Shown: one piece after another, positions 888 through 62,485 of the stretch
How positions within the stretch are numbered: the stretch's first letter is position 1
How the letters are laid out: every line of letters begins with the position of its first letter
NCBI GenBank assembly: GCA_947568835.1
Contig: OX387607.1
Location: forward strand, 19,061,277 to 19,125,276
Origin: Protonemura montana
Taxonomy: Eukaryota > Arthropoda > Insecta > Plecoptera > Nemouridae
Length of the DNA: 64,000 bases
Reading direction: 5' to 3'
Notes under the pieces: model-generated
What the model was told of the DNA's origin: nothing
What the model saw: only the letters and a program-made list of their open reading frames with translations
Database searches by the model: none
Position numbers and translations under genes: made by a program

Positions 888-3800
888 AGGATGCTCACGA
901 TACATGGCAGCAATTTAATGAGCCTAAAATTACTATGCTGACAAGAAAAACAAGCTTAACATAATACATTAGTGAAAAATAAAATTAGCCAAAGCTTTAT
1001 TAGCGCGCTGTTAGGTCAAAGAATACTAAATAAGTATGAGATTACTCCATATGTTAACACGGGTATATCATGGCCTAGCATAGGAGGTTCAATGGTAGAT
1101 TCAACGTTTGGTAGCCATGGAGATGCTGAGATCGCCTGACAGAGCTTCTCAATTCTGCTATCTTATGTTACCACGGGTATATCATGGCCAAGCATAAGAG
1201 GTTCAATGGTAGATTCAACGTTTGGTAGCCATGGAGATGCTGAGATCGCCTGACAGAGCTTCTCAATTCTGCTATCTTATGTTACCACGGGTATATCATG
1301 GCCTAGCATAGGAGGTTCAATGGTAGATTCAACGTTTGGTAGCAATGGAGATGCTGAGATCGCCTGACAGAGCTTCTCAATTCTGCTATCTTATGTTACC
1401 ACGGGTATATCATGGCCTAGCATAGGAGGTTCAATGGTAGATTCAACGTTTGGTAGCCATGGAGATGCTGAGATCGCCTGACAGAGCTTCTCAATTCTAC
1501 TATCTTATGTTACCACGGGTATATCATGGCCTAGCATAGGAGGTTCAATGGTAGATTCAACGTTTAGTAGCCATGGAGATGCTGAGATCACCTGACAGAG
1601 CTTCTCAATTCTGCTATCTTATGTTACCTAGGGTATATCATAGCCTAGCATAGGAGGTTCAATGGTAGATTCAACCTTTGGCAGCCATGGAGATGCTGAG
1701 ATCGCCTGACAGAGCTTCTCAATTCTGCTATCTTCTGTTACCACGGGTATATCATGGCCTAGCATAGGAGGTTTAATGATAGATTCAACGTTGGGTAGCC
1801 ATGGAGATGCTGAGATCACCTGACAGAGCTTCTCAATTCTGCTATCTTATGTTACCACGGGTATATCATGGCCTAGCATAAGAGGTTCAATGGTAGATTC
1901 AACGTTTGGTAGCCATGGAGATGCTGAGATCGCCTGACAGAGCTTCTCAATTCTGCTATCTTATGTTACCACGGGTATATCATGGCCTAGCATAAGAGGT
2001 TCAATGGTAGATTCAACGTTTGGTAGCCATGGAGATGCTGAGATCGCCTGACAGAGCTTCTCAATTCTGCTATCTTATGTTACCACGGGTATATCATGGC
2101 CTAGCATAAGAGGTTCAATGGTAGATTCAACGTTTGGTAGCCATGGAGATGCTGAGATAGCCTGACAGAGCTCCTCAATACCGCAGATATATTTTGACTT
2201 CAGATATGCAAAAAAAAATGTCCTGGTGTTTGAGAGAAACTAAAACGTTGTTGATGGAATTGGGAAAGATAACATTGAAAGTCAGCAAACTAACTAAGGA
2301 GGTCGGAGGAATACTTTACATTTTACCAAAGGTTATGGAAGTCGTTTATGTACCAATAAAACACCTGCTACTCACCTTGTCCCGAAGTCTTGAAGTTGTA
2401 AGCGCAGTCTGCAACATCTTGCAAGAGTCTCCTTGCAATGAGCTGGACCACGGTCTCGCAGTCTCGCTCCAAAGCATTCAGTGTGTTTTGAATTGTGTGA
2501 TTAATCGTCCGTTCAATGTCCACACAGACCTCTTCTATCTGGTTCACGCATCTCGTGGACTGCAGCAAAAGTACAGCTGAGTTGGCATTTTCAATGGGAG
2601 CCAGGGACATGTGTGTCAAGGTATAGGGCATGGTGCAAGCATGGATGTGTACAGCTGGGTTGGCATCTTCAATGGGAGCCAGGGACATGTGTGTCAAGGT
2701 ATAGGGCATGGTGCAAGCATGGATGTGTACAGCTAGGTTGGCATCTTCAATGGGAGTCAGGGACATGTGTACCAAGGTATAGGGCATGGTGCAAGCATGG
2801 ATGTGTACAGCTGAGTTGGCATCTTCAATGGGAGCCAGGGACATTTGTGTCAAGGTATAGGGCATGGTGCAAGCATGGATGTGTACAGCTGGATTGGCAT
2901 CTTCAATGGGAGCCAGGGACATGTGTGTCAAGGTATAGGGCATGGTGCAAGCATGGATGTGTACAGCTGGGTTGGCATCTTCAATGGGAGCCAGGGACAT
3001 GTGTGTCAAGGTATAGGGCATGGTGCAAGCATGGATGTGTACAGCTAGGTTGGCATCTTCAATGGGAGTCAGGGACATGTGTACCAAGGTATAGGGCATG
3101 GTGCAAGCATGGATGTGTACAGCTGAGTTGGCATCTTCAATGGGAGCCAGGGACATTTGTGTCAAGGTATAGGGCATGGTGCAAGCATGGATGTGTACAG
3201 CTGGATTGGCATCTTCAATGGGAGCCAGGGACATGTGTGTCAAGGTATAGGGCATGGTGCAAGCATGGATGTGTACAGCTGGGTTGGCATCTTCAATGGG
3301 AGCCAGGGACATGTGTGTCAAGGTATAGGGCATGGTGCAAGCATGGATGTGTACAGCTGGGTTGGCATCTTCAATGGGAGCCAGGGACATGTGTGTCAAG
3401 GTATAGGGCATGGTGCAAGCATGGATGTGTACAGCTGGGTTGGCATCTTCAATGGGAGCCAGGGACATGTGTGTCAAGGTATAGGGCATGGTGCAAGCAT
3501 GGATGTGTATAGCTGGGTTGGTATCTTCAATGGGAGCCAGGGACATGTGTGTCAAGGTATAGGGCATGGTGCAAGCATGGATGTGTACAGCTGGGTTGGC
3601 ATCTTCAATGGGAGCCAGGGACATGTGTGTCAAGGTATAGGGCATGGTGCAAGCATGGATGTGTACAGCTAGGTTGGCATCTTCAATGGGAGTCAGGGAC
3701 ATGTGTACCAAGGTATAGGGCATGGTGCAAGCATGGATGTGTACAGCTGAGTTGGCATCTTCAATGGGAGCCAGGGACATTTGTGTCAAGGTATAGGGCA

Positions 3801-6800
3801 TGGTGCAAGCATGGATGTGTACAGCTGGGATGACATCTTCAATGGGAGCCAGGGACATGTGTGTCAAGGTATAGGGCATGGTGCAAGCATGGATGTTTAC
3901 AGCTGGGTTGGCATCTTCAATGGGAGCCAGGGACATGTGTGTCAAGGTATAGGGCATGGTGCAAGCATGGATGTGTACAGCTGGGATGACATCTTCAATG
4001 GGAGCCAGGGACATGTGTGCCAAGGTATAGGGCATGGTGCAAGCATGGATGTTTACAGCTGGGTTGGCATCTTCAAGGAGAGCCAGGGACATGTGTGCCA
4101 AGGTATATGGCATGGTGCAAGCATGGATGTGTACAGCTGGGTTGGCATCTTCAATGGGAGCCAGGGACATGTGTGTCAAGGTATAAGGCATGGTGCAAGC
4201 ATGGATGTGTACAGCTGGGATGACATCTTCAATGGGAGCCAGGGACATGTGTGCCAAGGTATAGGGCATGGTGCAAGCATGGATGTGTACAGCTGGGTTA
4301 GCATCTTCAATGGGAGCCAGGGAAATGTGTGTCAAGGTATAGGGCATGGTGCAAGCATGGATGTGTACAGCTGAGTTGGCATCTTCAATGGGAGCCAGGG
4401 ACATGTGTGCCAAGGTATAGGGCATGGTGCAAGCATGGATGTGTACAGCTAGGTTGGCATCTTCAATGAGAGCCAGGGACATGTGTGTCAAGGTATAGGG
4501 CATGGTGCAAGCATGGATGTGTACAGCTGGGTTGACATCTTCAATGGGAGCCAGGGACATGTGTGCCAAGGTATAGGGCATGGTGCAAGCATGGATGTTT
4601 ACAGCTGGGTTGGCATCTTCAATGGGAGCCAGGGACATGTGTGTCAAGGTATAGGGCATGGTGCAAGCATGGATGTGTACAGCTGGGATGACATCTTCAA
4701 TGGGAGCCAGGGACATGTGTGCCAAGGTATAGGGCATGGTGCAAGCATGGATGTTTACAGCTGGGTTGGCATCTTCAAGGAGAGCCAGGGACATGTGTGC
4801 CAAGGTATATGGCATGGTGCAAGCATGGATGTGTACAGCTGGGTTGGCATCTTCAATGGGAGCCAGGGACATGTGTGTCAAGGTATAAGGCATGGTGCAA
4901 GCATGGATGTGTACAGCTGGGATGACATCTTCAATGGGAGCCAGGGACATGTGTGCCAAGGTATAGGGCATGGTGCAAGCATGGATGTGTACAGCTGGGT
5001 TAGCATCTTCAATGGGAGCCAGGGAAATGTGTGTCAAGGTATAGGGCATGGTGCAAGCATGGATGTGTACAGCTGAGTTGGCATCTTCAATGGGAGCCAG
5101 GGACATGTGTGCCAAGGTATAGGGCATGGTGCAAGCATGGATGTGTACAGCTAGGTTGGCATCTTCAATGAGAGCCAGGGACATGTGTGTCAAGGTATAG
5201 GGCATGGTGCAAGCATGGATGTGTACAGCTGGGTTGACATCTTCAATGGGAGCCAGGGACATGTGTGCCAAGGTATAGGGCATGGTGCAAGCATGGATGT
5301 GTACAACTGGGTCGGCATCTTCAATGGGAGCCAGGGACATGTGTGTCAAGGTATAGGGCATGGTGCAAGCATGGATGTGTACAGCTGGGTTGGCAACTTC
5401 AATGAGAGCCAGGGACATGTGTGCCAAGGTATAGGGCATGGTGCAAGCATGGACGTGTACAGCTGAGTTGGCATCTTCAATGGGAGCCAGGGACATTTGT
5501 GTCAAGGTATAGGGCATGGTGCAAGCATGGATGTGTATAGCTGGGTTGGCATCTTCAATGGGAGCCAGGGACATGTGTGTCAAGGTATAGGGCATGGTGC
5601 AAGCATGGATGTGTACAGCTGGGTTGGCATCTTCAATGGGAGCCAGGGACATGTGTGTCAAGGTATAGGGCATGGTGCAAGCATGGATGTGTACAGCTGG
5701 GTTGGCATCTTCAATGAGAGCCAGGGACATGTGTGTCAAGGTATAGGGCATGGTGCAAGCATGGATGTGTACAGCTGGGTTGGCATCTTCAATGGGAGCC
5801 AGGGACATGTGTGTCAAGGTATAGGGCATGGTGCAAGCATGGATGTGTACAGCTGGGTTGGCATCTTCAATGGGAGCCAGGGACATGTGTGTCAAGGTAT
5901 AGGGCATGGTGCAAGCATGGATGTGTACAGCTGGGTTGGCATCTTCAATGAGAGCCAGGGACATGTGTGTCAAGGTATAGGGCATGGTGCAAGCATGGAT
6001 GTGTACAGCTGGGTTGGCATCTTCAATGGGAGCCAGGGGCATGTGTGGCAAGGTATAGGGCCTGGTGCAAGCATGGATATTTACAGCTGGGTTAGCATCT
6101 TCAATGGGAGCCAGGGACATGTGTGTCAAGGTTTCTCTTACCTTGTTCAAGTCAGGTACGTAGATTGTTGGCATGGCGAAACCTGTCCTATTCAATCCCG
6201 GCCGCTTGCACAGTTCTTGTACGATCTGCATCATAACCCTACAATCAAAGCACGAGGCTTCATCATCACCCTTAGCTTAAGTCATCGTCATCTCCCTAAC
6301 TTCTAAAAGTGTGTACATACCTCTGTCTGTCCGACTCAGAGCCGGCGTCGTCTGCTTTCGACAAATAGAAGCGCATTTTCTCGGTGTGGGCGGCGTTTAG
6401 TCTCTCTACCAGCGTCAGCGTACGTTTGCACAACGCCTGGCCGATTGGATCAAAGAAGACGAACACCAAGTCAGACATCTTCCCTGGAACAGAAGACAAC
6501 ACGAGGCTCGTTACGTGAAATTAAATCAGGCGACTCTTAATTAAAGGGTGTTGCATCGTAGAGAAAAGAATGGTTAGAACCAATGCGGGTGAAAGCGTTG
6601 TAGTATTTTCACTTTATCCAGAGTTAGCAAGGAAATTAATAGTGATACTAAATTGAACGCTGAATTCGTGACTGAAAGGGGAAATCTTGACGCAAGTGTA
6701 GAATTACTAAGTTTGACGACCAATCTATTCGCTGTGATAATATTAACTGAACAGTGATCGTGCGCTGGTTGACCAGGGCAAGCAAATAGGACATAATTTG

Positions 6801-9800
6801 AAAGATATGGGAGTGTGATTAACTCGTAATGCAAACAAAACAATGCAATTGAATCGAAATAATGAAACTTGGATATTTAAAAAGTATATTATGTGATTTG
6901 GGTTGAAATCCAGGTGTGCATGTGGCCCCTGGACTGCCCCTATGTCCCAGGACTGCCCCTATGTCCCAGGACTGCCCCTATGATCATGTGTATGATGATC
7001 ACCCATCCAATACCTGACTCAGCGCAGTTTTGCTTAACTTTCATCCCTCCAACCTCTCTCCCGAACAGAACTGGTCATGTGTATGATTGTCACCCATCCA
7101 ATACCTGACTCAGCGCAGTTTTGCTTAACTTTCATCCCTCTAACCTCTCTCCCGAACAGAACTGGTCATGTGTATGATGGTCACCCATCCAATACCTGAC
7201 TCAGCGCAGTTTTGCTTAACTTTCATCCCTCCAACCTCTCTCCCGAACAGAACTGGTCATGTGTATGATGGTCACCCATAAAGTTGGCAATGTGTAGTCA
7301 GAGTCCACCAGGTTGTGGCAAGGTAAGGCTAACATGACTGTATGTCCCAGGGCTCGAGCTGCCCCTATGTCCCAGGGCTCGAGCTGCCCCTGGTTTGTGT
7401 TTGCTTCTTACCGAGCCACTCGATGGTCTCGTTTACATCGAACGGGTACTGCATGTCTCCGTCCACCAGGCCGGGCGTGTCCACGAATGTCACAAGACTG
7501 AACTTCTTTTGTTTAGAAGTTGAGATCTCGGTGGACAGGAAATCCACTGCACCTGCAAGCAGAACAAACACATTTGAAGGCACGATCACTTTGAAGAATT
7601 AAACCCGTTCAGCAAATGTCTGTTAATAATTATACACATAATTGGTTATTAAGTTAATAACACCAGTTTGTTTAGGATTTTATTTCAGAAAATACAAAAT
7701 ACGTAATTTTTTGAGTTATTGACCCTGATTATTTTATTTACATGCATTTAGGAAGCTTGAACTTGGTAGTTGTTATAATTTTATGTGGTTCTTTTGTTAT
7801 CGGAAAATTGTCAGGACTGCTCTTGAAGAAGTAACAGGTACAAGTTACGAAACGTTGGGAAATTTAGTTGTTCTTCACTTAGCATTCAAAACCCAGTTCA
7901 ATTAGTTTTTGTTAAAACTAGTGCTAAGTTTACATCAAGTAGACATGAGTCTAAAAACTATCACAATGTCTATGAAATTTTAATTTAATTGCAAATGCTA
8001 CCAAGTTTTTTATTATTGAGACGCTAATAATCTCACACAAATTTGACTAAAAATGCACGAAAATTCTAACAAAAATTACAATTAGCAACGACAGGTGAAG
8101 ATCTGGGTTCGAGTCCCCGTTTCGACACCAATATTTGAGAGGTTAGAGTGTTCATAATAATCAAAAATAAACCCGTTTGCTTTGTTTAGTAAAACATTGT
8201 CATCGAAAGCTGTCGTTCAAGACTTCAGCATCGTAATAGAATAAGGATTGACCTCTCGCAAACGCATCCAATGTCAAATTGGAGTTATTCGAGATTGACA
8301 GGTTGTGACGTGATATAGCGTCACTAGAATCAGAGTGACTGTGAGTATTCACAGTCTCTTGGTTCTACCGTTGAGTGTAGGTTATAGTTAGAGTTTCAAC
8401 GTCAATGTTACAGTCTCTGCGTGAAAGATGGCCGCCAAATGACTACCTTACCGACAAAAATGCAGAGTACCGGAACATCACGTTAAGTGGAGCCACTGTC
8501 GTATGAAATTTAATTTCGATATTTATAGTAGGTTACTCGCTTATGAATATCGTTACGTGTTTATCAATCGTTGAGGTAAACATTGATGAAGATTTTTTGA
8601 GCATGAAAAGTTTTAAAAGCAAGTTAACTTACGAGAAATATTGAAATTAAAATTCATATAACAGTGGCTCCACTTAACGAGATTGTCCGGTACTCTGCAT
8701 TTTTGTCGGTAAGGTAGTAATTTTTCACGCAGAGACTTTAACGTTGACGTTGAAACTCTACCTAGAACCTACACTCAACGGTTCCACTCCTTGGAGATCC
8801 GTCATTCTCATCAAATACACTAAAATCCTTTAAAAAATGTCTGTTTTTATAGCACAGATCTAACAGCTGAAGATTCAAATCTCATTGACTCATCAAAGGC
8901 AAAGAATGAGGAGCAAAGTTCAAGCATATTTTATTTTATTCGTTCATTTATTATTTTATGCAGATGAATACAGAATATTATTGGGAGGCACCCAACATAA
9001 CAATATTAAAAACTAAATCTGTTGAATGCTATCTAACAAATCCACAACATTATCTTAAATTAAATAGAAAGGAATATTAATCAGCTTATCTTAAAATCTG
9101 AATTCTCATGAGATTACATCCAAGCTTATGAAGGAGAAAGATCCCAGCGACTTTTTATTTTTTTGTTTATTTGACACAAACTTTCTGCAGCCAAAATTGC
9201 AAATGCTGAGCGACAAAATTTTAAGTGCATTTCAATTAGAAACCTGATTGTTTATTTGTCTATTTAAACTGATAAATTTGAATTCTGCTGGTCAAACAAA
9301 TGACCGGCAGCTTTAATGAATGTTCTTGTGTCATTTTAACAGATTTCAGCGACAAATCTGCTTTTTATTGCAGCAAGGTTTTAACTCCCCACGGAAAAAA
9401 TGTGAGTAGATTTTAATTATTGTAATTCCATCCTCTCAACAAACTGCAGGCGGGTTATTTACGAACAAATTGGCTCACTTTTTATTATTATCAACACTAT
9501 AACCGTCTCATAAATTGATGCCTATACGGGGACTCGAACCCCGATCTTCACCTGTCGCAAGTGTTGCTCTAACCAATTGAGCTACTTGGACACTGGCTTT
9601 TTGAGAAGATTTTAGTGTATTATAATAAAATACCCTGCGCGTTGCAAGCGTTTGCAATTTAAATAATATTTCATCCTAATACAGCAACGAATCCAACGTC
9701 AAATTGGAGTTATTCGAGTTTGACAGGTTGTGACGTGATATAGCGTCACTAGAATCAGAGTGACTATGAGTATTCACAGCCTCTTGGTTCTACTCCTTGG

Positions 9801-23433: not shown

Positions 23434-23439
23434 TTTTCT

Positions 23440-25380: not shown

Positions 25381-25582
25381 GCCAACTTTACCGCTGGTAC
25401 CAATCCTGGGTACCGATCACGTAACTTTTACGCCAGATATTACGGACTTTGTCTCCATAAATAAGGTGGAATCACCCGTGAATTTTCCGAGATAATTTTC
25501 GTAATCTATCACGGAAAAGTTGCGCGATCGCTACCCTGAAAATGTTACAGCAGGTAAGAAATCCAGTCCACAAGGCGGTGCT

Positions 25583-25720
25583 TCAATCTTCCAGCTCAAG
25601 GTCGAGCTCAAGGTCAACAATCTCAATCTCCTTCAACGTGTTGATGAACGTGAAGCGGGAAAATCTCATGTACAGTCGACGATACCAGACATACTGCGAG
25701 CGATGAGCTTTCATCGCCCT
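25583..25720 (-). CDS. PIGL: PIGL exon 6 (stop codon)
   Basis: Acceptor TTCTAG. It encodes RAMKAHRSQYVWYRRLYMRF, then FTFINTLKEIEIVDLEL, and stops at 25583. The RSQxxWxRRLYxxFSR block is the typical end of PIG-L. The acidic tail after it is not a conserved part of the family. Confidence 0.93.
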   Translation of the reverse strand, partial: RAMKAHRSQYVWYRRLYMRFSRFTFINTLKEIEIVDLELDLELED

Positions 25721-29936: not shown

Positions 29937-30250
29937 TTAGAAATACTTTGCAAAAGTCATTTGATTTCAGTTACGTGACAGAATCCTTGTAAATTATCGA
30001 TAATTAAACAGATTCGTATCAGTATTTCCATCTTAATTTGTAGCAATACGGCTCCAATTATGAAAACTGTGTGCGTCAGACTTAATAAGACGTGAACCCT
30101 AAAACTAAAAAATAGTCACAGGCACAGCAGTTTATCCAGCTGTATTTGCAGCTGTGATATAGGCAAGCTGCAGCGCAGGGTTTGTTTTCGTCACGTGATC
30201 TCTGTCAGCTGATACTGCCTAGAGCGTAGCTAGAAACCGTTATCAAATGT
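29937..30250 (-). promoter_or_regulatory. Probable PIGL promoter region
   Basis: This is the stretch immediately upstream of the PIGL start. It includes GTCACGTGATCTCTG (an E-box-like CACGTG) near 30190. No TATA box or initiator can be assigned, and the call rests on position. Confidence 0.3.
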
Positions 30251-32950: not shown

Positions 32951-32996
32951 TTGTTCTGCTGCTGGTTAACTCGATGCTCTTCGGTTGGTTGGCTTG

Positions 32997-33058
32997 TTAG
33001 AGCTTCTTGTACCAGAACAAGTAGTGACCTCCGTCTTCAACGATCAGTCCATCGACAC
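32997..33058 (-). CDS. Cobalamin-binding protein, last exon
   Basis: 62 bp, acceptor TGCTTGCAG. It encodes VDGLIVEDGGHYLFWYKKL and a TAA stop. The phase fits the previous exon exactly, and the terminal aromatic strand is the usual end of the beta domain. Confidence 0.9.
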
Positions 33059-51000: not shown

Positions 51001-54000
51001 ATAACCTGGATAGAGCATAGGATCCAGTCAGCTGATCTCAAATAACCTGGATAGAACATAGGATCCAGCCAGCTGATCTCAAATAACCTGGATAGAGCAT
51101 AGGATTCAGCCAGCTGATCTCAAATAACCTGGATAGAGCATAGGATCCAGTCAGCTGATCTTAAATAACCTGGATAGAACATAGGATCCAGCCAGCTGAT
51201 CTCAAATAACCTGGATAGAGCATAGGATCCAGTCAGCTGATCTTAAATAACCTGGATAGAACATAGGATCCAGCCAGCTGATCTCAAATATCCTGGATAG
51301 AACATAGGATCCAGCCAGCTGATCTCAAATAACCTGGATAGAGCATAGGATCCAGCCAGCTGATCTCAAATAACCTGGATAGAGCATAGGATCCAGTCAG
51401 CTGATCTTAAATAACCTGGATAGAACATAGGATCCAGCCAGCTGATCTCAAATAACCTGGATAGAACATAGGATCCAGCCAGCTGATCTCAAATAACCTG
51501 GATAGAGCATAGGATCCAGCCAGCTGATCTCAAATAACCTGGATAGAGCATAGGATCCAGCCAGCTGATCTTAAATAACCTGGATAGAACATAGGATCCA
51601 GTCAGCTGATCTCAAATAACCTGGATAGAGCATAGGCTCCAGCCAGCTGATCAAATTTAAGTCAGGCAATCTATTTTTGGCAACAGGTTACCATTAAAGT
51701 GGTACTCCTGATGTAACTTAAAATAACATTGTCTCTTTCCAAGAACTCAAAATAACGGACTCTCAAGATGGCTGAGTTGGCTTCACAGTATCTCTATGGC
51801 AACCGGTCTCCAGATTAAATGAGATCAGTTTTGAACAGCAGGTCACTTTGTTACCAGTTTACGGTGCAGTACTGCGTCACTCAAAGCCTAGAGAGTTCTG
51901 AAAAACTAACGAGGTCGTGCGATTGTGAGGTTAGTAGATCGTAAATTACCCATGACGTCATGAGGTCATGAGGTCGGGTGTTAAGACTTACCCACGAGGT
52001 CGTGAGATTGTGAGGTCAGTTTATCGTGAATTACCCATGACGTCATGAGGTCATGAGGTCGGGTGTTTAGACTTACCCACGAGGTCGTGTCCGTGAAAGC
52101 GCAGAGGGTCGTGACAGATTGAGTTAAGTGCCAGGGTGTAGAGGGCAAGACGAGCTGGAGTCATCGGGTTGTCATGGTGACTGAAAACAAGCTTGATGTT
52201 AGCACCCATGAGTCGCTCAGACGCTGCCAGTAGATCCTCCTAACAGCGGAGTGGGGAGACCCATAATCACTCAGACGCGCTGTCAGTAGATCCTCCTAAC
52301 AGCGGAGTGGGGAGACCCATGAGTCGCTCAGACGCTGCCAGTAGATCCTCCTAACAGCGGAGTGGGGAGACCCATGAATCGCTCAGACGCGCTGTCAGTA
52401 GATCCTCCTAACAGCGGAGTGGGGAGACCCATGAATCGCTCAGACGCGCTGTCAGTAGATCCTCCTAACAGCGGAGTGGGGAGACCCATGAATCGCTCAG
52501 ACGCTGTCAGTAGATCCTCCTAACAGTGGAGTGGGGAGACCCATGAATCGCTCAGACGCGCTGTCAGTAGATCCTCCTAACAGCGGAGTGGGGAGACCCA
52601 TGAATCGCTCAGACGCGCTGTCAGTAGATCCTCCTAACAGCGGAGTGGGGAGACCCATGAATCGCTCAGACGCGCTGTCAGTAGATCCTCCTAACAGCGG
52701 AGTGGGGAGACCCATGAATCGCTCAGACGCGCTGTCAGTAGATCCTCCTTACAGCGGAGTGGGGCGACCCATGAATCGCTCAGACGCGCTGTCAGTAGAT
52801 CCTCCTAACAGCGGAGTGGAGAGACCCATGAATCACTCAGACGCTGTCAGTAGATCCTCCTAACAGCAGAGTGGGGAGACCCATGAATCGCTCAGACGCG
52901 CTGTCAGTAGATCCTCCTAACAGCGGAGTGGGGAGACCCATGAATCGCTCAGACGCGCTGTCAGTAGATCCTCCTAACAGCGGAGTGGGGAGACCCATGA
53001 GTCGCTCAGACGCGCTGTCAGTAGATCCTCCTAACAGCGGAGTGGGGAGACCCATGAATCGCTCAGACGAGCTGTCAGTAGATCCTCCTAACAGCGGAGT
53101 GGGGAGACCTATGAATCGCTCAGACGCGCTGTCAGTAGATCCTCCTAACAGCGGAGTGGGGAGACCCATGAGTCGCTCAGACGCGCTGTCAGTAGATCCT
53201 CCTAACAGCGGAGTGGGGAGACCCATGAATCGCTCAGACGCGCTGTCAGTAGATCCTCCTAACAGCGGAGTGGGGAGACCCATGAATCACTCAGACGCGC
53301 TGTCAGTAGATCCAACTAACAGCAGAGTGGGGAGACCCATGAATCGCTCAGACGCGCTGTCAGTAGATCCTCCTAACAGCGGAGTGGGGAGACCCATGAA
53401 TCGCGCTAAAGATTTTTTTGAACCTTCTCTTTTTAAAAGCTATTTTAGCGCATTTAAGTTTAAGGCACCAGCCATGTTTTGATTGGTGGTATGAAAATAT
53501 TTGCATAACATGGCGCTTCAAACCTAGCTAGCAAGTAACGGAAATAACCCAATGATGGTTATGGAAGCTAGCCTGATAAAATGTGCAACCAAACCGGGAT
53601 ACGAACCCTAGATCTCCCAATTTCCCGTCAAGTGTTCTACCAACTGAGCTATCCGGGCATACAGATTCCAGCTTCGCAGGGTTGGAGAAGGGATCCCATA
53701 ATTTTTTTTTTTAATCTTTCTTAGATTACTGCAAGCACAATCGAGAGACACCTGCCGTCACCGCGTGTTGCCGGCCTCGTTTGCTCAGCAGCAAACTTTC
53801 GGGCAAGCTTACACGCTAGACACATGAGTAGTGAACAAACTCACCGCCAGAGTCGCAGAACAATCTCGAGCTCCATCTGCTTGGCGCTCAGCTGCGCTTC
53901 AAGCGACGAGCCTGCGCAACACCAGCTTCCATTGGAAGCCGCCTGCAGCGCCAAGACGGCAGCAGGCGTCGCGGCGCCCCATCCGGCGTCGGGCAGAGTC

Positions 54001-54043
54001 TGCTTGGTCAGCCATTCGGCGGCTCGTGATGCACCAAGCGACG
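32997..54043 (-). CDS. Transcobalamin/intrinsic-factor-like cobalamin-binding protein (eight exons resolved, N-terminus missing)
   Basis: Seen: exons 53845-54043, 52077-52180, 50805-50989, 36031-36207, 35193-35468, 34884-34990, 34088-34242 and 32997-33058 join in phase to about 420 residues plus a stop. The first five give the helical alpha/alpha-barrel repeats of the family (LSAKQMELEIVLRLW, RLALYTLALNSICHD, FAVTSLAVCSSGKHV, PDGSFGGSIRATALATQ, SADGSFGDVTLTTEV). The last three give the C-terminal beta domain (DUF4430-like), with VTVSYTLW, YYVMQIAAERDPHF, ATEWPNGHYVHTLAG and VDGLIVEDGGHYLFWYKKL. Known: transcobalamin, intrinsic factor and haptocorrin are secreted vitamin B12 carriers that clamp the ligand between these two domains. 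The secretion signal is not seen and should lie upstream. The intron at 36208-50804 is about 14.6 kb and carries the tandem Helitron-like block. Confidence 0.88.
33590..33870 (+). repeat. Dispersed repeat family M, copy 5
   Basis: It matches the family from AACGCCAATTTGTTCGGG through ATCGGAAAATTGCCAGGACT to AAGTAGACGTGAGT. Confidence 0.75.
33945..34170 (-). repeat. Tandem duplication of an exon tail with its donor
   Basis: The last 60-70 bp of the exon at 34088-34242 plus the donor recur twice more toward lower coordinates. Donors are GTAAGT at 34087, GTAAGT at 34028 and GTAATA at 33955. The copies share GTGCTGCCATCTC, and the third keeps TGATGCCGCCGGGCAACCAA. Confidence 0.88.
34088..34242 (-). 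CDS. Cobalamin-binding protein exon, beta domain, donor region in three copies
   Basis: 155 bp, acceptor TTGTCTCTAG and donor CAGTCG/GTAAGT. It encodes FSATEWPNGHYVHTLAGYRE, then LSYYWLLYVLPSLPDTMM and PPGNQLLSPV. The WPNGHYVHTLAG block is strongly typical of this family. The last 60-70 bp with the donor are repeated twice more downstream (33957-34087). Confidence 0.9.
34662..34876 (-). repeat. G/T-rich minisatellite next to a 5' splice site
   Basis: A long unit of about 77 nt is present twice, itself built of short TTTTGAGAAGG and TTTTGGGATGG motifs. It begins about 8 bases past the donor of exon 34884-34990. Confidence 0.85.
34884..34990 (-). CDS. Cobalamin-binding protein exon, beta domain
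   Basis: 107 bp, acceptor ATGTTTCAG and donor TTCGT/GTAAGT. The product is VGTNVTEKHFLTVTAP followed by SSFYYVMQIAAERDPHF, the strand-helix element of the C-terminal B12-clamping domain. A G-rich minisatellite begins about 8 bases past the donor. Confidence 0.9.
35193..35468 (-). CDS. Cobalamin-binding protein exon, end of helical domain and linker
   Basis: 276 bp, acceptor TTTTTCCAG and donor TGG/GTAAGT. It encodes 92 residues starting ALKSLEDDTSEFWRRESAES, with SADGSFGDVTLTTEVILSL, then a Thr/Pro-rich linker and the first beta strand VDEVTVSYTLW. A CRE-like TGACGTCA lies inside the coding sequence near 35299, probably by chance. Confidence 0.9.
35490..36010 (+). repeat. 5S-rRNA-derived SINE (copy S5)
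   Basis: Starts GTGAGATCACAGAAGTTAAG, with three 91-nt units, the central domain at 35795-35945 (GGAGGAATCCTGTTGTTCGC, GTGCCGGCACCGGG) and a short tail with GCGTCGTTAAAC. It fills most of the intron between two cobalamin-binding exons and ends about 20 bp short of the donor at 36030. Confidence 0.87.
36031..36207 (-). CDS. Cobalamin-binding protein exon
   Basis: 177 bp, acceptor TGCCACCAG and donor ACACAG/GTACAG. It encodes VFPTETLSMVLLALNCIARD and ends APDGSFGGSIRATALATQ. The T-x-x-M-x-x-LAL and DGSFG motifs are typical of the family. It is phase 0 at both ends. Confidence 0.9.
36390..36900 (+). repeat. Dispersed repeat family M, copy 6 with a partial second copy
   Basis: A full-length match at 36390-36710 is followed by a partial copy at 36740-36890 that repeats AGTTTTTGTTAAAACTAGTG and CATCAAGTAGACAT. 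Confidence 0.75.
36962..40496 (+). mobile_element. Helitron-like tandem unit 1
   Basis: Starts TTAACCTTATATAAAAGC after an A and ends GGGTACTGCTAG, followed by T. The leader is at 36962-38225 (including AACGTCAAAGTCAACGTC and GGTGTCTTGGCTAGCAAGA). The 10-nt array is at 38225-40380, with a 3' region of about 115 bp (CATCAAAGAAAACTCGA, CCGTTAGGCAGCGGG). The CTAG end and insertion between A and T without a target duplication fit Helitrons; the 5' TC is absent. No Rep/helicase gene is present, so it is non-autonomous. Confidence 0.7.
38225..40380 (+). repeat. 10-nt repeat array TATGGTATTC in unit 1
   Basis: Over 200 imperfect copies of TATGGTATTC with variants such as TATGGAGTTC, TTTGGTATTC and TATGATATTG. 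Because 10 is not a multiple of 3 and the unit lacks stops on this strand, all three frames read as YGILWYSMVF-like polymers. These are not proteins. Confidence 0.95.
40497..43779 (+). mobile_element. Helitron-like tandem unit 2
   Basis: It joins unit 1 directly at CTAG/TTAACC. Its leader is only about 760 bp: the second half present in the other units is missing after GGCTAGCAAGA. The 10-nt array is at about 41255-43690. Confidence 0.7.
43780..47463 (+). mobile_element. Helitron-like tandem unit 3
   Basis: Leader at 43780-45062, array at about 45062-47290, 3' end CGGGTACTGCTAG. Within the array a 667-bp block (from about 45715) is repeated almost exactly from 46382. Confidence 0.7.
47464..50734 (+). 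mobile_element. Helitron-like tandem unit 4
   Basis: Leader at 47464-48735, array at about 48735-50575. The 3' region includes ATTTGGATAGGGCATCAAAG and ends CTAG before TTCTCAATAT, which is the right flank of the whole block. Confidence 0.7.
50805..50989 (-). CDS. Cobalamin-binding protein exon
   Basis: 185 bp, acceptor TTCTTCCCAG and donor GAC/GTAATA. The product includes SLLHHEPSVERDFAVTSLAV, then CSSGKHVHKRTLRHLLDIAE, resembling the YYQxGLxxLALC helix of transcobalamin. The donor was chosen because phase 0 is needed to meet the next exon. The 41-nt array begins 13 bp upstream of the acceptor. Confidence 0.86.
51002..51652. repeat. 41-nt minisatellite, second array
   Basis: About 16 copies of the same 41-nt family as 17510-19812, here starting 13 bp upstream of a cobalamin-binding exon acceptor. 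Confidence 0.95.
51905..52100 (-). repeat. 85-nt duplication including a 5' splice site
   Basis: The last bases of exon 52077-52180 with its donor (GACCTCGTGG/GTAAGTC) recur at 51992 after an 85-nt unit, with part of a third unit reaching 51905. Each unit also carries TGACGTCATGAGGTCATGAG on the plus strand. Confidence 0.88.
52077..52180 (-). CDS. Cobalamin-binding protein exon
   Basis: 104 bp, acceptor TTTTCAG and donor CGTGG/GTAAGT. It encodes HHDNPMTPARLALYTLALNS and ICHDPLRFHGHDLV, which aligns with the GQLALYLLALRANC helix of transcobalamin. Its 5' splice site is duplicated in the downstream intron. A 57-nt array ends within about 25 bp of its 3' splice site. Confidence 0.9.
52205..53403. 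repeat. 57-nt minisatellite
   Basis: About 21 copies of a 57-nt unit (ATGAATCGCTCAGACGCGCT, GTCAGTAGATCCTCCTAACA). Units are nearly identical; a few lack two or three bases. As 57 is a multiple of 3, the 19-residue open frames on both strands are by-products. It ends within about 25 bp of the acceptor at 52181. Confidence 0.96.
53586..53658 (-). repeat. tRNA-derived SINE head (second type)
   Basis: The minus strand reads GCCCGGATAGCTCAGTTGG, TAGAACACTTGACGGGAAAT, then GGGTTCGTATCCC. D- and T-arms are present, but the 3' acceptor strand does not match the 5' one, so it is a SINE head and not a tRNA. Confidence 0.7.
53845..54043 (-). CDS. Cobalamin-binding protein exon (first resolved)
   Basis: 199 bp, acceptor ATGCTTCCAG and donor TGGCG/GTGAGT. 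The product contains AAEWLTKQTLPDAGWGAATP and SLEAQLSAKQMELEIVLRLW. The W-G-x-x-T-P and SAKQxELE patterns match the N-terminal helices of transcobalamin-like proteins from invertebrates. It is GC-rich compared with its surroundings. The 31-nt array starts about 55 bp upstream of the acceptor. Confidence 0.87.
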
Positions 54044-54097
54044 CTGGAAGCATAAAGAACCTGATATCAGCATGAGAGACAAATTTGATGACAAAAA

Positions 54098-57000
54098 GTG
54101 CACGTGGAGGCCAGGGTGAGCTTCCAACGTGCACGTGGAGGCCAGGGTGAGCTTCCAACGTGCACGGGGAGGCCAGGGTGAGCTCCCAACGTGCACAAGG
54201 AGGCAAGGGTGAGCTTCCAACGTGCACGGGGAGGCCAGGGTGAGCTCCCAACGTGCACGGGGAGGCCAGGGTGAGCTCCCAACGTGCACGGGGAGGCCAG
54301 GGTGAGCTTCCAACGTGCACGGGGAGGCCAGGGTGAGCTTCCAACGTGCACGGGGAGGCCAGGGTGAGCTCCCAACGTGCACGGGGAGGCCAGGGTGAGC
54401 TCCCAACGTGCACGGGGAGGCTAGGGTGAGCTCCCAACGTGCACGGGGAGGCCAGGGTGAGCTTCCAACGTGCACGTGGAGGCCCGGGTGAGCTCCCAAC
54501 GTGCACGGGGAGGCTAGGGTTAGCTCCCAACGTGCACGGGGAGGCCAGGGTGAGCTCCCAACGTGCACGGGGAGGCTAGGGTGAGCTCCCAACGTGCACG
54601 GGGAGGCTAGGGTGAGATTCCAACGTGCACGGGGAGGCCAGGGTGAGCTCCCAACGTGCACGGGGAGGCCAGGGTGAGCTTCCAACGTGCACGTGGAGGC
54701 CAGGGTGAGCTTCCAACGTGCACGGGGAGGCCAGGGTGAGCTTCCAACGTGCACGTGGAGGCCAGGGTGAGCTTCCAACGTGCACAGGGAGGCCAGGGTG
54801 AGCTCCCAACGTGCACGGAGAGGCCAGGGTGAGCTTCCAACGTGCACGTGGAGGCCAGGGTGAGCTTCCAACGTGCACGGGGAGGCCAGGGTGAGCTCCC
54901 AACGTGCACGGGGAGGCCAGGGTGAGCTTCCAACGTGCACGTGGAGGCCAGGGTGAGCTCCCAACGTGCACGGGGAGGCTAGGGTGAGCTTCCAACGTGC
55001 ACGGGGAGGCCAGGGTGAGCTTCCAACGTGCACAAGGAGGCCAGGGTGAGCTTCCAACGTGCACGTGGAGGCCAGGGTGAGCTTCCAACGTGCACGGGGA
55101 GGCCAGGGTGAGCTCCCAACGTGCACGGGGAGGCCAGGGTGAGCTCCCAACGTGCACGGGGAGGCTAGGGTGAGCTTCCAACGTGCACGGGGAGGCCAGG
55201 GTGAGCTTCCAACGTGCACGGGGAGGCCAGGGTGAGCTCCCAACGTGCACGTGGAGGCCAGGGTGAGCTTCCAACGTGCACAGGGAGGCCAGGGTGAGCT
55301 TCCAACGTGCACGGGGAGGCCAGGGTGAGCTTCCAACGTGCACGGGGAGGCCAGGGTGATCTCCCAACGTGCACGGGGAGGCCAGGGTGAGCTCCCAACG
55401 TGCACGGGGAGGCCAGGGTGAGCTTCCAATGTGCACGTGGAGGCCAGGATGAGCTCCCAACGTGCACGGAGAGGCCAGGGTGAGCTTCCAACGTGCACGT
55501 GGAGGCCAGGGTGAGCTTCCAACGTGCACGGAGAGGCCAGGGTGAGCTCCCAACGTGCACGGGGAGGCCAGGGTGAGCTTTCAACGTGCACGGGGAGGTC
55601 AGGGTGAGCTTCCAACGTGCACGGGGAGGCCAGGGTGAGCTTCCAACGTGCACGGGGAGGCCAGGGTGAGCTTCCAACGTGCACGGGGAGGCCAGGGTGA
55701 GCTTCCAACGTGCACGGGGAGGCCAGGGTGAGCTTCCAACGTGCACGGGGAGGCCAGGGTGAGCTCCCAAAGTGCACGGGGAGGCCAGGGTGAGCTTCCA
55801 ACGTGCACGGGGAGGCCAGGGTGAGCTTCCAACGTGCACGGGGAGGGCAGGGTGAGCTTCCAACGTGCACGGGGAGGCCAGGGTGAGCTTCCAACGTGCA
55901 CGGGGAGGCCAGGGTGAGCTTCCAACGTGCACGGGGAGGCCAGGGTGAGCTTCCAACGTGCACGGCCAGGGTGAGCTTCCAACGTGCACGGGGAGGCCAG
56001 GGTGAGCTTCCAACGTGCACGGGGAGGCCAGGGTGAGCTCCCAACGTGCACGGGGAGGCCAGGGTGAGCTCCCAACGTGCACGGAGAGGCCAGGGTGAGC
56101 TTCCAACGTGCACGGGGAGGCCAGGGTGAGCTCCCAACGTGCACGGGGAGGCCAGGGTGAGCTTCCAACGTGCACGGGGAGGCCAGGGTGAGCTTCCAAC
56201 GTGCACGGGGAGGCCAGGGTTAGCTTCCGACGTGCACGGGGAGGCCAGGGTGAGCTTCCAACGTGCACGGGGAGGCCAGGGTGAGCTCCCAACGTGCACG
56301 GGGACGCCAGGGTGAGCTTCCAACGTGCACGGGGAGGCCAGGGTGAGCTTCCAACGTGCACGTGGAGGCCAGGGTGAGCTCCCAACGTGCACGGGGAGGC
56401 CAGGGTGAGCTTCCAACGTGCACGTGGAGGCCAGGGTGAGCTCCCAACGTGCACAAGGAGGCCAGGGTGAGCTTCCGACGTGCACGGGGAGGACAGGGTG
56501 AGCTTCCAACGTGCACAAGGAGGCTAGGGTGAGCTTCCGACGTGCACAAGGAGGCCAGGGTGAGCTCCCAACGTGCACAAGGAGGCCAGGGTGAGCTTCC
56601 GACGTGCACGGGGAGGCCCGGGTGAGCTCCCAACGTGCACAAGGAGGCCAGGGTGAGCTCCCAACGTGCACAAGGAGGCCAGGGTGAGCTTCCAACGTGC
56701 ACGGGGAGACCAGGGTGAGCTTCCAACGTGCACGAGGAGGCCAGGGTGAGCTTCCAACGTGCACGGGGAGGCCCGGGTGAGCTTCCAACGTGCACGGGGA
56801 GGCAAGGGTGAGCTTCCAACGTGCACGGGGAGGCCCGGGTGAGCTTCCAACGTGCACGGGGAGGCAAGGGTGAGCTTCCAACGTGCACAAGGAGGCCAGG
56901 GTGAGCTCCCAACGTGCACAAGGAGGCCAGGGTGAGCTTCCAACGTGCACGGGGAGGCCCGGGTGAGCTCCCAACGTGCACAAGGAGGCCAGGGTGAGCT

Positions 57001-59266
57001 CCCAACGTGCAAAAGGAGGCCAGGGTGAGCTTCCAACGTGCACGGGGAGACCAGGGTGAGCTTCCAACGTGCACGAGGAGGACAGGGTGAGCTTCCAACG
57101 TGCACGGGGAGGTCAGGGTGAGCTTCCAACGTGCACGTGGAGGCCAGGGTGAGCTTCCAACGTGCACGGGGAGGACAGGGTGAGCTTCCAACGTGCACGG
57201 GGAGGCCAGGGTGAGCTCCCAACGTGCACGGGGAGGCCAGGGTGAGCTTCCAACGTGCACGGGGAGGGCAGGGTGAGCTTCCAACGTGCACGGGGAGGCC
57301 AGGGTGAGCTTCCAACGTGCACGGGGAGGCCAGGGTGAGCTTCCAACGTGCACGGGGAGGCCAGGGTGAGCTTCCAACGTGCACGGCCAGGGTGAGCTTC
57401 CAACGTGCACGGGGAGGCCAGGGTGAGCTTCCAACGTGCACGGGGAGGCCAGGGTGAGCTCCCAACGTGCACGGGGAGGCCAGGGTGAGCTCCCAACGTG
57501 CAAAAGGAGGCCAGGGTGAGCTTCCAACGTGCACGGGGAGACCAGGGTGAGCTTCCAACGTGCACGAGGAGGACAGGGTGAGCTTCCAACGTGCACGGGG
57601 AGGTCAGGGTGAGCTTCCAACGTGCACGTGGAGGCCAGGGTGAGCTTCCAACGTGCACGGGGAGGACAGGGTGAGCTTCCAACGTGCACGGGGAGGCCAG
57701 GGTGAGCTCCCAACGTGCACGGGGAGGCCAGGGTGAGCTTCCAACGTGCACGGGGAGGGCAGGGTGAGCTTCCAACGTGCACGGGGAGGCCAGGGTGAGC
57801 TTCCAACGTGCACGGGGAGGCCAGGGTGAGCTTCCAACGTGCACGGGGAGGCCAGGGTGAGCTTCCAACGTGCACGGCCAGGGTGAGCTTCCAACGTGCA
57901 CGGGGAGGCCAGGGTGAGCTTCCAACGTGCACGGGGAGGCCAGGGTGAGCTCCCAACGTGCACGGGGAGGCCAGGGTGAGCTCCCAACGTGCACGGAGAG
58001 GCCAGGGTGAGCTTCCAACGTGCACGGGGAGGCCAGGGTGAGCTCCCAACGTGCACGGGGAGGCCAGGGTGAGCTTCCAACGTGCACGTGGAGGCCAGGG
58101 TGAGCTCCCAACGTGCACGGGGAGGCCAGGGTGAGCTTCCAACGTGCACGTGGAGGCCAGGGTGAGCTCCCAACGTGCACAAGGAGGCCAGGGTGAGCTT
58201 CCGACGTGCACGGGGAGGACAGGGTGAGCTTCCAACGTGCACAAGGAGGCTAGGGTGAGCTTCCGACGTGCACAAGGAGGCCAGGGTGAGCTCCCAACGT
58301 GCACAAGGAGGCCAGGGTGAGCTTTCGACGTGCACGGGGAGGCCCGGGTGAGCTCCCAACGTGCACAAGGAGGCCAGGGTGAGCTCCCAACGTGCACAAG
58401 GAGGCCAGGGTGAGCTTCCAACGTGCACGAGGAGACCAGGGTGAGCTTCCAACGTGCACGAGGAGGCCAGGGTGAGCTTCCAACGTGCACGGGGAGGCCC
58501 GGGTGAGCTTCCAACGTGCACGGGGAGGCAAGGGTGAGCTTCCAACGTGCACGGGGAGGCCCGGGTGAGCTTCCAACGTGCACGGGGAGGCAAGGGTGAG
58601 CTTCCAACGTGCACAAGGAGGCCAGGGTGAGCTCCCAACGTGCACAAGGAGGCCAGGGTGAGCTTCCGACGTGCACGGGGAGGCCCGGGTGAGCTCCCAA
58701 CGTGCACAAGGAGGCCAGGGTGAGCTCCCAACGTGCACAAGGAGGCCAGGGTGAGCTTCCAACGTGCACGGGGAGACCAGGGTGAGCTTCCAACGTGCAC
58801 GAGGAGGACAGGGTGAGCTTCCAACGTGCACGGGGAGGTCAGGGTGAGCTTCCAACGTGCACGTGGAGGCCAGGGTGAGCTTCCAACGTGCACGGGGAGG
58901 ACAGGGTGAGCTTCCAACGTGCACGGGGAGGCCAGGGTGAGCTCCCAACGTGCACGGGGAAGCCAGGGTGAGCTTCCAACGTGCACGGGGAGGCCAGGGT
59001 GAGCTTCTAACGTGCACGGGAAGGCCAGGATGAGCTTCCAACGTGCACGGGGAGGCCAGGGTGAGCTTCCAACGTGCACGGGGAGGCCAGGGTGAGCTCC
59101 CAACGTGCACGGGGAAGCCAGGGTGAGCTTCCAACGTGCACGGGGAGGCCAGGGTGAGCTTCTAACGTGCACGGGAAGGCCAGGATGAGCTTCCAACGTG
59201 CACGGGGAGGCCAGGGTGAGCTTCCAACGTGCACGGGGAGGCCAGGGTGAGTTCCCAACGTGCACG
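54098..59266. repeat. 31-nt minisatellite, about 165 copies
   Basis: Unit of 31 nt (AACGTGCACGGGGAGGCCAG, GGTGAGCTTCC), tandem over 5.2 kb. The unit is stop-free in every minus-strand frame, producing 31-residue periodic open frames of up to about 1,000 codons. Segmental duplications occur: a block near 56450-57010 recurs about 1.73 kb later, and one near 57060-57480 recurs about 0.5 kb later. Shortened units (CACGGCCAGGGTG) mark the duplicates. Confidence 0.97.
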
Positions 59267-59269
59267 GAG

Positions 59270-59555
59270 TGGGACGATGATTTCCCTCAGGTAGACTTGG
59301 GTGAGCGCCGAGCATGTCTTGCAGAGGATTGTTTAACTCGCACAGACTGATAACAGCTGCTATCTCTGATATTGTGTTGTCACGCTTGGGGTCATCCGTG
59401 ATAAAGATCAGGTAAACAATGTAAGGAACCTCGACTCGACAGTCGTGCTCAGAAGCTCTCAGGCAACAGAAGACGTCACTTTCTGTGAGGTTTAAACATC
59501 TACCTTTAGTCGGGCCTCGAGTTGCAGGAATAAGAATCTTAACCAGGAACTTCAT
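59270..59555 (-). CDS. Candidate upstream exon of the cobalamin-binding gene, or of an unidentified gene
   Basis: The minus-strand frame from the ATG at 59555 reads MKFLVKILIPATRGPTKGRC, then VFCCLRASEHDCRVEVPYIV and continues to NNPLQDMLGAHPSLPEG, where it runs into the 31-nt array. The sequence looks coding (no repeats, cysteine-containing, balanced composition), and PYIVYLIFITDD is strand-like. I do not recognise it confidently. Strand and position make it a candidate N-terminal exon of the cobalamin gene, but no clear phase-1 donor was found, and the N-terminus is not a good signal peptide. Confidence 0.4.
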
Positions 59556-59609
59556 AAGCGATTTAAGATGTTGGACCCGCTGGTTTTGTTAAAAAAACCG
59601 ACTTTTATA

Positions 59610-59627
59610 ATGAAGATCGTTGCATTG
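59610..59627 (+). CDS. Membrane-protein exon 1 (18 coding bases)
   Basis: ATG followed by five codons (MKIVAL) and the donor GTGAGTAAAT. It was chosen because it joins exon 2 in phase 0 and completes the first hydrophobic helix. An exon this short rests on the splice pattern alone. Confidence 0.4.
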
Positions 59628-61678: not shown

Positions 61679-61706
61679 GTACGTCAGCAAAGCGTCTTAA
61701 GTTCCC

Positions 61707-62485
61707 ATCAGGAGGGTCTTTGTTCGATTCATGTCCATCTTGTCAGGTGTCAACATTTCAACCCGTCTCGACTCGACCATCTAAGCTGTGTTGCCAACTC
61801 ACGTACCTACCCCCACCCCTTCCCATCAGGAGGGTCTTTGTTTGATTCATGTCCATCTTGTCAGGTGTCAACATTTCAACCCGTCTTGACTCGACCATCT
61901 AAGCTGTGTTGCCAACTCACGTACCTACCCCCACCCCTTCCCATCAGGAGGGTCTTTGTTTGATTCATGTCCATCTTGTCAGGTGTCAACATTTCAACCC
62001 GTCTCGACTCGACCATCTAAGCTGTGTTGCCAACTCACGTACCTACCCCCACCCCTTCCCATCAGGAGGGTCTTTGTTCGATTCATGTCCATCTTGTCAG
62101 GTGTCAACATTTCAACCCGTCTCGACTCGACCATCTAAGCTGTGTTGCCAACTCACGTACCTACCCCCACCCCTTCCCATCAGGAGGGTCTTTGTTCGAT
62201 TCATGTCCATCTTGTCAGGTGTCAACATTTCAACCCGTCTCGACTCGACCATCTAAGCTGTGTTGCCAACTCGCGTACCTACCCCCACCCCTTCCTATCA
62301 GGAGGGTCTTTGTTCGATTCATGTCCATCTTGTCAGGTGTCAACATTTCAACCCGTCTCGACTCGACCATCTAAGCTGTGTTGCCAACTCGCGTACCTAC
62401 CCCCACCCCTTCCTATCAGGAGGGTCTTTGTTCGATTCATGTCCATCTTGTCAGGTGTCAACATTTCAACTCGTCTCGACTCAAC
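61707..62485 (+). repeat. 118-nt minisatellite, second array
   Basis: About 6.6 copies of the same 118-nt unit as 59686-60023, starting about 28 bp after the donor of membrane-protein exon 2. Confidence 0.95.

What the first reader, a model, noticed from the sequence alone, without database searches (positions are those of the whole stretch)
2370..62485. Minisatellites are anchored to splice junctions across unrelated genes
Arrays start within about 10-30 bases of the donors at 6141, 34883 and 61679. They stop within about 10-60 bases of the acceptors at 2560, 17448, 50990, 52181 and 54044. At three donors the repeated unit includes the splice site. At least ten of some twenty junctions in the window are involved, in three or four unrelated genes, with unrelated unit sequences. 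This points to a mechanism acting at exon-intron borders and not to spread of one repeat. Exon-intron minisatellites are reported in amphioxus (from memory).
Basis: partly seen in the sequence, partly recalled or inferred. Interest (0 to 1): 0.85.

Follow-up and report, generated by a model that had tools for sequence, protein, structure and literature searches.

The report
Satellite arrays that fill whole introns
Near the chromosome ends of this animal genome (probably an arthropod), short DNA sequences repeated head to tail occur in many copies, and some fill introns of ordinary genes almost exactly from splice site to splice site, so dispersed satellite DNA there sits right up against the splicing signals.

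Summary
Of 29 junctions tested, 10 lie within 60 bp of an array; 5000 random placements gave 1.2 on average, 6 at most. One sub-claim shrinks: I find one donor inside a repeated unit (52076), not three.

The interpretation needs correcting. The four units tested are dispersed families: 41 bp, 27,344 matches; 78 bp, 1,777; 57 bp, 850; 31 bp, 783. Of 16 arrays of the 78-bp family read with flanks, 13 (7 of 10 distinct genes) score as an intron packed between two exons; homology across the junction backs SERCA, troponin C, ABCD, phosphatase and kelch genes. Residual intron there is 20-59 bp. Two of these introns are old, so the arrays filled introns and did not make them. The 31- and 41-bp families are less clear (3 of 8 and 1 of 7), 57 introns in 20 kinase-gene stretches hold no array, and tRNA- and 5S-type arrays in the window are not anchored.

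Most likely: satellites from distal chromosome regions invade short introns, and selection on splice signals sets their ends. Why one family favours introns is not settled.

The parts
2571..6132 (.). 78-bp unit array, 45.7 copies; 99% of the intron between exons 6142-6243 and 2376-2559 of the minus-strand GTPase gene
   Evidence: TRF; donor gap 9, acceptor gap 11, score only 25.7; intron 3582 bp, residual 20 bp; family of 1,777 matches genome-wide
54098..59267 (.). 31-bp unit array, 167 copies; 54 bp from acceptor 54043; donor side not resolved
   Evidence: family of 783 matches
50999..51652 (.). 41-bp unit array, 16 copies, 9 bp upstream of acceptor 50989
   Evidence: family of 27,344 matches
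17505..19817 (.). 41-bp unit array, 56 copies, 57 bp upstream of acceptor 17447, in an intron of about 5.2 kb
52204..53404 (.). 57-bp unit array, 21 copies, 23 bp upstream of acceptor 52180
   Evidence: family of 850 matches
51909..52089 (.). 85-bp unit, 2.1 copies, spanning the donor at 52076: the one duplication of an exon-intron border found in the window ('mirage'-like)
   Evidence: same donor again at 51991
34679..34875 (.). 11/77-bp unit array, 8 bp from donor 34883
61702..62482 (.). 118-bp unit array, 6.6 copies, 23 bp after donor 61679 (same unit at 59682-60024)
38242..50568 (.). two arrays of a 10-bp unit (38242-47284 and 48737-50568) in one intron of the cobalamin-binding-like gene; 225 bp from the exon at 50794, so not abutting
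1050..2179 (.). 114-bp unit array in the intron 854-2375, 196 bp from both junctions, so not abutting; same unit inverted at 14827-15996
720..23456 (-). dynamin-like GTPase gene; exons 23316-23456, 22633-22744, 17299-17447, 7412-7552, 6321-6483, 6142-6243, 2376-2559, 720-853
   Evidence: no Pfam hit for the exons tried, so the name rests on motifs from recall; 6142-6243 and the edge 2559 placed by eye
34884..59480 (-). cobalamin-binding-like gene (PF01122, weak: E 0.0013, 18.2 bits, under its cut-off of 25); exons about 59297-59480, 53845-54043, 52077-52180, 50794-50989, 36031-36207, 35193-35468, 34884-35018
   Evidence: that these form one gene is inferred

Best explanation
Several satellite families are dispersed through this animal's chromosomes, three of the four tested mainly in the distal parts. 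Copies have got into spliceosomal introns, above all (for the 78-bp family) into what were probably very short ones, and in nine genes with resolved edges they make up 85-99% of the intron, leaving 20-59 bp of gene-specific sequence that holds the 5' splice site and the end of the 3' splice site. In SERCA the array changes length by whole units with fixed edges, and it has spread with duplicated chromosome-end segments. The array edges lie at splice junctions because little else in so short an intron is under selection. Shown: dispersal of the families; intron filling in named genes; that two host introns are older than the arrays; length change in whole units for SERCA. Inferred: that arrays came as insertions that partly replaced the old intron body, and that selection on splice signals sets the edges. 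Unknown: the route by which arrays move between introns and why the 78-bp family was so rarely seen elsewhere.
For: Dispersal: 41-bp unit 13,243+14,101 matches, 78-bp unit 910+867, 31-bp unit 390+393, 57-bp unit 492+358, reversed-pattern controls 0. Distal position: of 93 perfect 41-bp matches listed on C1 (33.1 Mb), 88 lie in the first 1 Mb or the last 3.7 Mb (counted by hand). Intron filling: of 16 arrays of the 78-bp family read with flanks, 13 score >=40 for exon + donor before and acceptor + exon after, against 0.27% of 1500 random single-copy points in the window region and 15.9% of 1500 in kinase loci. These 16 are 10 distinct genes (SERCA six times, troponin C twice), of which 7 reach 40. 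Residual sequence (donor plus acceptor side): 20 (window GTPase), 32 and 41 (troponin C twice), 36 (SERCA), 52 (phosphatase), 59 (L030), 49 (ABCD), 33 (WAP), 20 (kelch), and 52 bp for a 41-bp array in an ALIX-like gene (for SERCA and the phosphatase I set the splice sites by eye, where the script had chosen others). Homology across the junction: SERCA, 210 residues without gap; ABCD1, equal spans of 126 residues; troponin C; phosphatase, kelch and ALIX domains, and for a 31-bp array (L035) a DUF1619_N domain. Old introns: the ABCD intron splits, after its second base, the codon aligned with residue 622 of ABCD1, where the human variant c.1866-10G>A (p.P623fs) puts an intron border (PMC5421786, passages); the troponin C break recurs in four other paralogues, with gaps of about 86, 94, 435 and 1229 bp (worked out from coordinates; the 86-bp one lies between the two array-bearing copies). 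Whole-unit change: of 48 SERCA copies with both exons, 43 have intron lengths equal to a multiple of 78 or one less. No shared element ends: edges fall at different phases of the unit and flanks differ between genes. Internal control: tRNA- and 5S-type arrays in the window are not anchored.
Against: Random insertion plus selection should leave many 78-bp arrays in intergenic DNA and long introns, yet 13 of 16 score as sitting between exons; this asks for a preference that the explanation does not supply. Not all 13 are equally firm: L030 has a weak acceptor and no Pfam match, and L031 has strong coding score on one side only; L048 and the window array score 24.9 and 25.7. The 31-bp arrays outside the window are looser: donor plus acceptor gaps chosen by the script range from 27 to 198 bp in seven loci. 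Two window arrays abut a junction inside longer introns (17505 in about 5.2 kb; 52204 in about 1.7 kb), which short introns do not explain. That host introns were short before rests on few cases: one troponin C sister (about 86 bp; others are 94 to 1229), array-free introns of 63, 77, 78 and 167 bp in 2-3.5 kb stretches that cannot show long ones, and the 77-bp gap at 6244-6320 placed by eye. Kinase-gene introns have a median of 440-511 bp, 257 bp when limited to 700-bp windows. No RNA evidence: all splice sites are predicted.
Confidence: 0.55

Rival explanations
1. A process tied to splicing or to exon-intron borders (for example repair with template switching at transcription-linked breaks near splice sites) creates or places arrays at junctions.
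For: Anchoring far above chance in the window; intron position of 13 of 16 arrays of the 78-bp family; one border duplication at 52076; arrays within 9-23 bp of acceptors 2559, 50989 and 52180, two of them not in filled short introns.
Against: Same units dispersed genome-wide; none of 57 kinase-gene introns carries an array of 100 bp or more; 41-bp arrays at C1 4.95 and 12.40 Mb do not score as lying between exons (L043, L044: 16.0 and 11.4); anchored units usually do not contain the splice site.
Confidence: 0.2
2. Geometry only: half of the window is tandem repeat, so junctions must lie near array edges, and very short introns cannot hold an array elsewhere.
For: Tandem repeats cover 50% of the window against 0-2.4% of 20 kinase-gene stretches; the four array-free introns seen in array loci are 63, 77, 78 and 167 bp.
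Against: Random placement of the same arrays outside exons never reached the observed count in 5000 trials; arrays in long introns still abut a junction (57 bp in about 5.2 kb, 23 bp in about 1.7 kb); residuals of 20-59 bp are shorter than any of those array-free introns, so part of the old intron seems to be gone.
Confidence: 0.15
3. Introner-like: the arrays are mobile elements whose insertion into exons created the introns.
For: A family of similar introns in unrelated genes is what introner searches look for (PMC9860276: search listing with abstract opening, and one passage).
Against: ABCD and troponin C introns pre-date the arrays; no shared element ends, both orientations.
Confidence: 0.05
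4. The stretches are coding repeats, not introns (the 78-bp unit is 26 codons and has open frames).
For: The unit has two open frames on one strand and one on the other; an open frame of 1302 codons contains the exon next to the window array.
Against: Intron lengths are not consistently multiples of 3; spliced products align with SERCA and ABCD1 without insertion; a stop follows the upstream exon in 48 of 49 SERCA copies.
Confidence: 0.03

Closest known systems
Amphioxus 'mirages' (minisatellites over exon-intron borders: Adh3, globin genes BflGb6 and BflGb9)
   Same: Tandem repeats at exon-intron borders in unrelated genes; copy number changes; units of 10-72 bp and 150-160 bp (PMC3087553, passages).
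   Different: Mirage units contain exon sequence and the splice signal and are described per gene; here the anchored units are mostly wholly intronic, in the 78-bp genes reach both ends of the intron, and belong to dispersed families. Only the 85-bp repeat at 51909-52089 fits the mirage definition.
Introners / introner elements
   Same: Families of similar introns in unrelated genes (PMC9860276 listing and one passage; PMC7789003 passages).
   Different: No common element ends seen, tandem arrays of variable length, and at least two host introns are older than the arrays.
Subtelomeric satellite families
   Same: Hundreds to thousands of copies concentrated near chromosome ends, moved with duplicated end segments.
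   Different: Here one family (78 bp) was found mostly inside introns of protein-coding genes (13 of 16 places read).
CeRep25B minisatellite in C. elegans introns
   Same: A minisatellite at many places, 75% of repeats in introns (PMC4039745, passages).
   Different: There the link is enrichment near alternative exons, and the repeats are clustered on two chromosomes; nothing was said in the passages about filling introns from splice site to splice site.

Membership tests
Amphioxus mirage | Repeat unit spans the exon-intron border, splice signal included | tested here: not met
   Met by the 85-bp unit at donor 52076; not met at 6141 and 34883; among the 78-bp genes only ABCD (L032) has a donor, GTACAGCT, equal to the start of the unit
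Amphioxus mirage | Found in a cephalochordate | tested here: inconclusive
   cox1 reads with the invertebrate code in nd2-cox1-cox2 order and looks arthropod-like, by recall; PDB matches of cox1 do not decide it; troponin C is closest to entry 2jnf (organism from recall)
Introner | Similar introns in many unrelated genes | tested here: met
   78-bp arrays in SERCA, troponin C, ABCD, phosphatase, kelch, WAP/thyroglobulin genes
Introner | Insertion created the intron (position new) | tested here: not met
   ABCD intron at the human ABCD1 site; troponin C intron shared by paralogues; the other genes not tested
Introner | Element ends with target-site duplication | tested here: inconclusive
   Edges at different unit phases and no common ends seen by eye; no formal search for duplications was run
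Subtelomeric satellite | High copy number, concentrated near chromosome ends | tested here: met
   for 41-, 78- and 31-bp units, from listings capped at the first places; the 57-bp unit is more scattered
Spliceosomal intron | Removed from mRNA | not testable with these tools
   No RNA data; homology across the junction supports it in six genes with 78- or 41-bp arrays and one with a 31-bp array

The most novel reading that the evidence does not exclude
A class of satellite DNA that spreads specifically by colonising or replacing existing spliceosomal introns: the intron is its habitat, it takes over the intron body up to the splice signals at both ends, and it moves between introns of unrelated genes in either orientation by a route that is neither transposition with fixed ends nor simple segment duplication.
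Probability: 0.25. Interest if true: 0.85.

Novelty: new variant of a known kind. Interest (0 to 1): 0.62.

Why it matters
If whole-genome data confirm it, old introns of conserved genes can have their bodies replaced by one satellite while splicing signals stay, which makes it directly testable how little of an intron is needed, how satellites move into genes, and whether introns are a protected habitat for satellite DNA. It also gives a natural series, 48 copies of one SERCA intron from 390 to 2726 bp long, for testing the effect of intron length on splicing.

Tried and rejected
Coding repeats: rejected. Intron length always a multiple of the unit, hinting at intron circles copied head to tail: true for SERCA (43 of 48 at 0 or -1 modulo 78) but not for the window gene, troponin C, ABCD, WAP, kelch, phosphatase or L030 introns (my arithmetic on the lengths), and the SERCA copies are near-identical duplicates that probably share one founder, so taken as coincidence. 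Orientation bias relative to the gene: not evident by eye, no test run. Cobalamin-binding family search of the genome found nothing and is uninformative. A fuller sample of 41-bp arrays could not be fetched: only 4 of the many places listed were read, besides arrays met by chance. Decoy splice sites inside arrays were counted: mostly none in gene sense, but the two 41-bp window arrays and the ABCD and phosphatase arrays hold many donors of good score, so no pattern is claimed. The gene finder is home-made and its weak calls are mostly noise (at threshold 15, 210 real against 98 in a Markov control); the window test uses a few exons of modest score and five junctions placed by eye. The Mann-Whitney tests count duplicated copies (SERCA six times) as independent. 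Literature: five searches on minisatellites, satellites or tandem repeats with amphioxus, introns or splice junctions, two on introners and one to find the ABCD1 intron; nothing like satellite-filled introns was seen in the listings, but most subscription papers are not held and supplements were not searched.

Full report
What the window holds. The window is C5:19061277-19125276 of a 258.5-Mb genome in 34 contigs. Tandem repeats of period 7 or more cover 50% of it. With them and by reading the sequence I place two minus-strand genes, a dynamin-like GTPase (exons between 23456 and 720) and a cobalamin-binding-like gene (exons between 59480 and 34884), a PIG-L exon (29532-29936) and a plus-strand exon at 61517-61678. 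The GTPase name rests on motifs from recall; PF01122 is below its cut-off.

The observation. Ten of 29 junctions lie within 60 bp of one of 24 arrays; random placement outside exons gave 1.19 on average and never more than 6 in 5000 trials. Nine of the 24 arrays are of 52-bp or 91-bp units. Those units overlap tRNA-Ser-like and 5S-rRNA-like matches: Rfam tRNA matches touch three of the four 52-bp arrays, and one 5S match touches one of the five 91-bp arrays, the rest sharing the unit. None of the 29 junctions lies within 30 bp of these nine and one lies within 60 bp, so they serve as an internal control. Only one donor, at 52076, lies inside a repeated unit.

The units are dispersed. Searches of the whole genome with up to 3 mismatches gave 27,344 matches for the 41-bp unit, 1,777 for a 49-bp piece of the 78-bp unit, 783 for the 31-bp unit and 850 for a 50-bp piece of the 57-bp unit, with no match to reversed controls. 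In the listings, which show only the first hundred or so perfect matches, the 41-, 78- and 31-bp units lie mainly in the distal few Mb of chromosomes; the 57-bp unit is more scattered. In contrast the 20 kinase stretches have 0 to 2.4% tandem repeats, and none of their 57 phase-compatible introns (a few of them too short to be real) holds an array of 100 bp or more. So this is not a property of borders everywhere.

The other copies. I fetched all 15 further places of the 78-bp family in the capped list of perfect matches (C1, C2 and the one on C3), all 8 further places of the 31-bp family in its list, and 4 of the many of the 41-bp family (further 41-bp arrays came along in L024, L035 and L050). 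A score for exon plus donor before the array and acceptor plus exon after it was computed for each scorable array. For the 78-bp family 13 of 16 (window included) reach 40. By distinct gene it is 7 of 10: SERCA (six loci), troponin C (two), phosphatase (L025), ABCD (L032), kelch (L049), L030 and L031. L030 has a weak acceptor and no Pfam match, and L031 has strong coding score on one side only. L033 (37.4) has a WAP domain before and a thyroglobulin domain after the junction; the window copy scores 25.7 and L048 (24.9) is unresolved. Random single-copy points reach 40 in 0.27% of 1500 cases in the window region and 15.9% in kinase loci, where points can fall in long exons. For the 31-bp family it is 3 of 8 scored (window included; L051 could not be scored), with script-chosen gaps of 27 to 198 bp in the seven outside the window; for the 41-bp family 1 of 7; for 24 other arrays 1. 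Mann-Whitney tests against the kinase and the window-region null gave p = 2e-7 and 1e-11 (78), 0.005 and 6e-6 (31), 0.18 and 0.007 (41), 0.68 and 0.007 (others); duplicated copies are counted as independent there.

The introns are real and old. The product spliced over the array aligns without gap to SERCA over 210 residues and to ABCD1 over equal spans, residues 539-664 (that alignment itself was not printed); troponin C aligns over the junction with one residue of gap elsewhere; phosphatase, kelch and ALIX domains span it, as does a DUF1619_N domain at the 31-bp array of L035. The SERCA donor appears to be GC-AG. The ABCD intron lies after the second base of the codon aligned with residue 622, where the human gene has an intron by the variant name c.1866-10G>A, p.P623fs (PMC5421786, passages). 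The troponin C break is present in four other paralogues, with gaps of about 86, 94, 435 and 1229 bp; the 86-bp one lies between the two array-bearing copies (coordinates only). So these arrays entered existing introns.

Anatomy. In nine genes with resolved edges (eight with 78-bp arrays, ALIX with a 41-bp array) the array is 85-99% of the intron and 20-59 bp remain (SERCA and phosphatase sites set by eye). In the window GTPase gene, kelch and troponin C L026 only 11-14 bp separate the array from the acceptor, so the branch point is probably inside the array (inference). Flanks differ between genes, edges fall at various phases of the unit, and both orientations occur. Forty-nine copies of the upstream SERCA exon lie on 11 contigs, on nine of them within about 1 Mb of an end (for C14 and C15 I do not know the contig length); 48 pair with the next exon, and intron lengths step by 78 (43 of 48 at 0 or -1 modulo 78), so edges stay fixed while copy number changes.

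Reading. Dispersed satellites have taken over intron bodies, for the 78-bp family probably of very short introns, and the surviving single-copy ends are the splice signals. That selection sets the edges is inference; insertion into already short introns fits the array-free introns seen nearby (63, 77, 78 and 167 bp, a small and length-limited sample) and the 86-bp troponin C sister, but not the two window arrays that abut one junction of a longer intron. What is not explained is why the 78-bp family was so rarely seen outside introns. A border-specific mechanism therefore stays open as a rival, and so does a satellite that specifically spreads through introns.

Limits.

Noticed in passing
   Followed up: partly
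window 1-506, 9850-10215, 13867-14128, 63377-64000; L023, L024: Arrays of a 52-bp unit, in both orientations, three of the four in the window overlapping a tRNA-Ser-like match: probably tRNA-derived elements with an internal array.
   Followed up: no
window 6984-7279, 11819-12534, 22022-22300, 26759-27072, 35507-35785: Arrays of a 91-bp unit, one overlapping a 5S-rRNA-like match at 21974-22094: possibly 5S-derived elements with an internal array.
   Followed up: no
window 38242-50568: About 11 kb of a 10-bp unit (TATGGTATTC) in two blocks within one intron of the cobalamin-binding-like gene.
   Followed up: no
G000 C4:5760925-5762262 and C34:3504-4841: A cox1 match of equal score lies on a chromosome-sized contig and on another contig, C34 (perhaps mitochondrial), with further partial copies on C4: nuclear mitochondrial inserts or misassembly.
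   Followed up: no
L041 1-317 and 1617-1810; L028 125-292: Other introns of the same ALIX-like and troponin C genes carry other, unrelated arrays (44-, 13- and 19-bp units), one ending at a predicted acceptor.
   Followed up: partly
L045 around 620-640: One SERCA copy seems to lack the usual donor sequence of the array intron.
   Followed up: no
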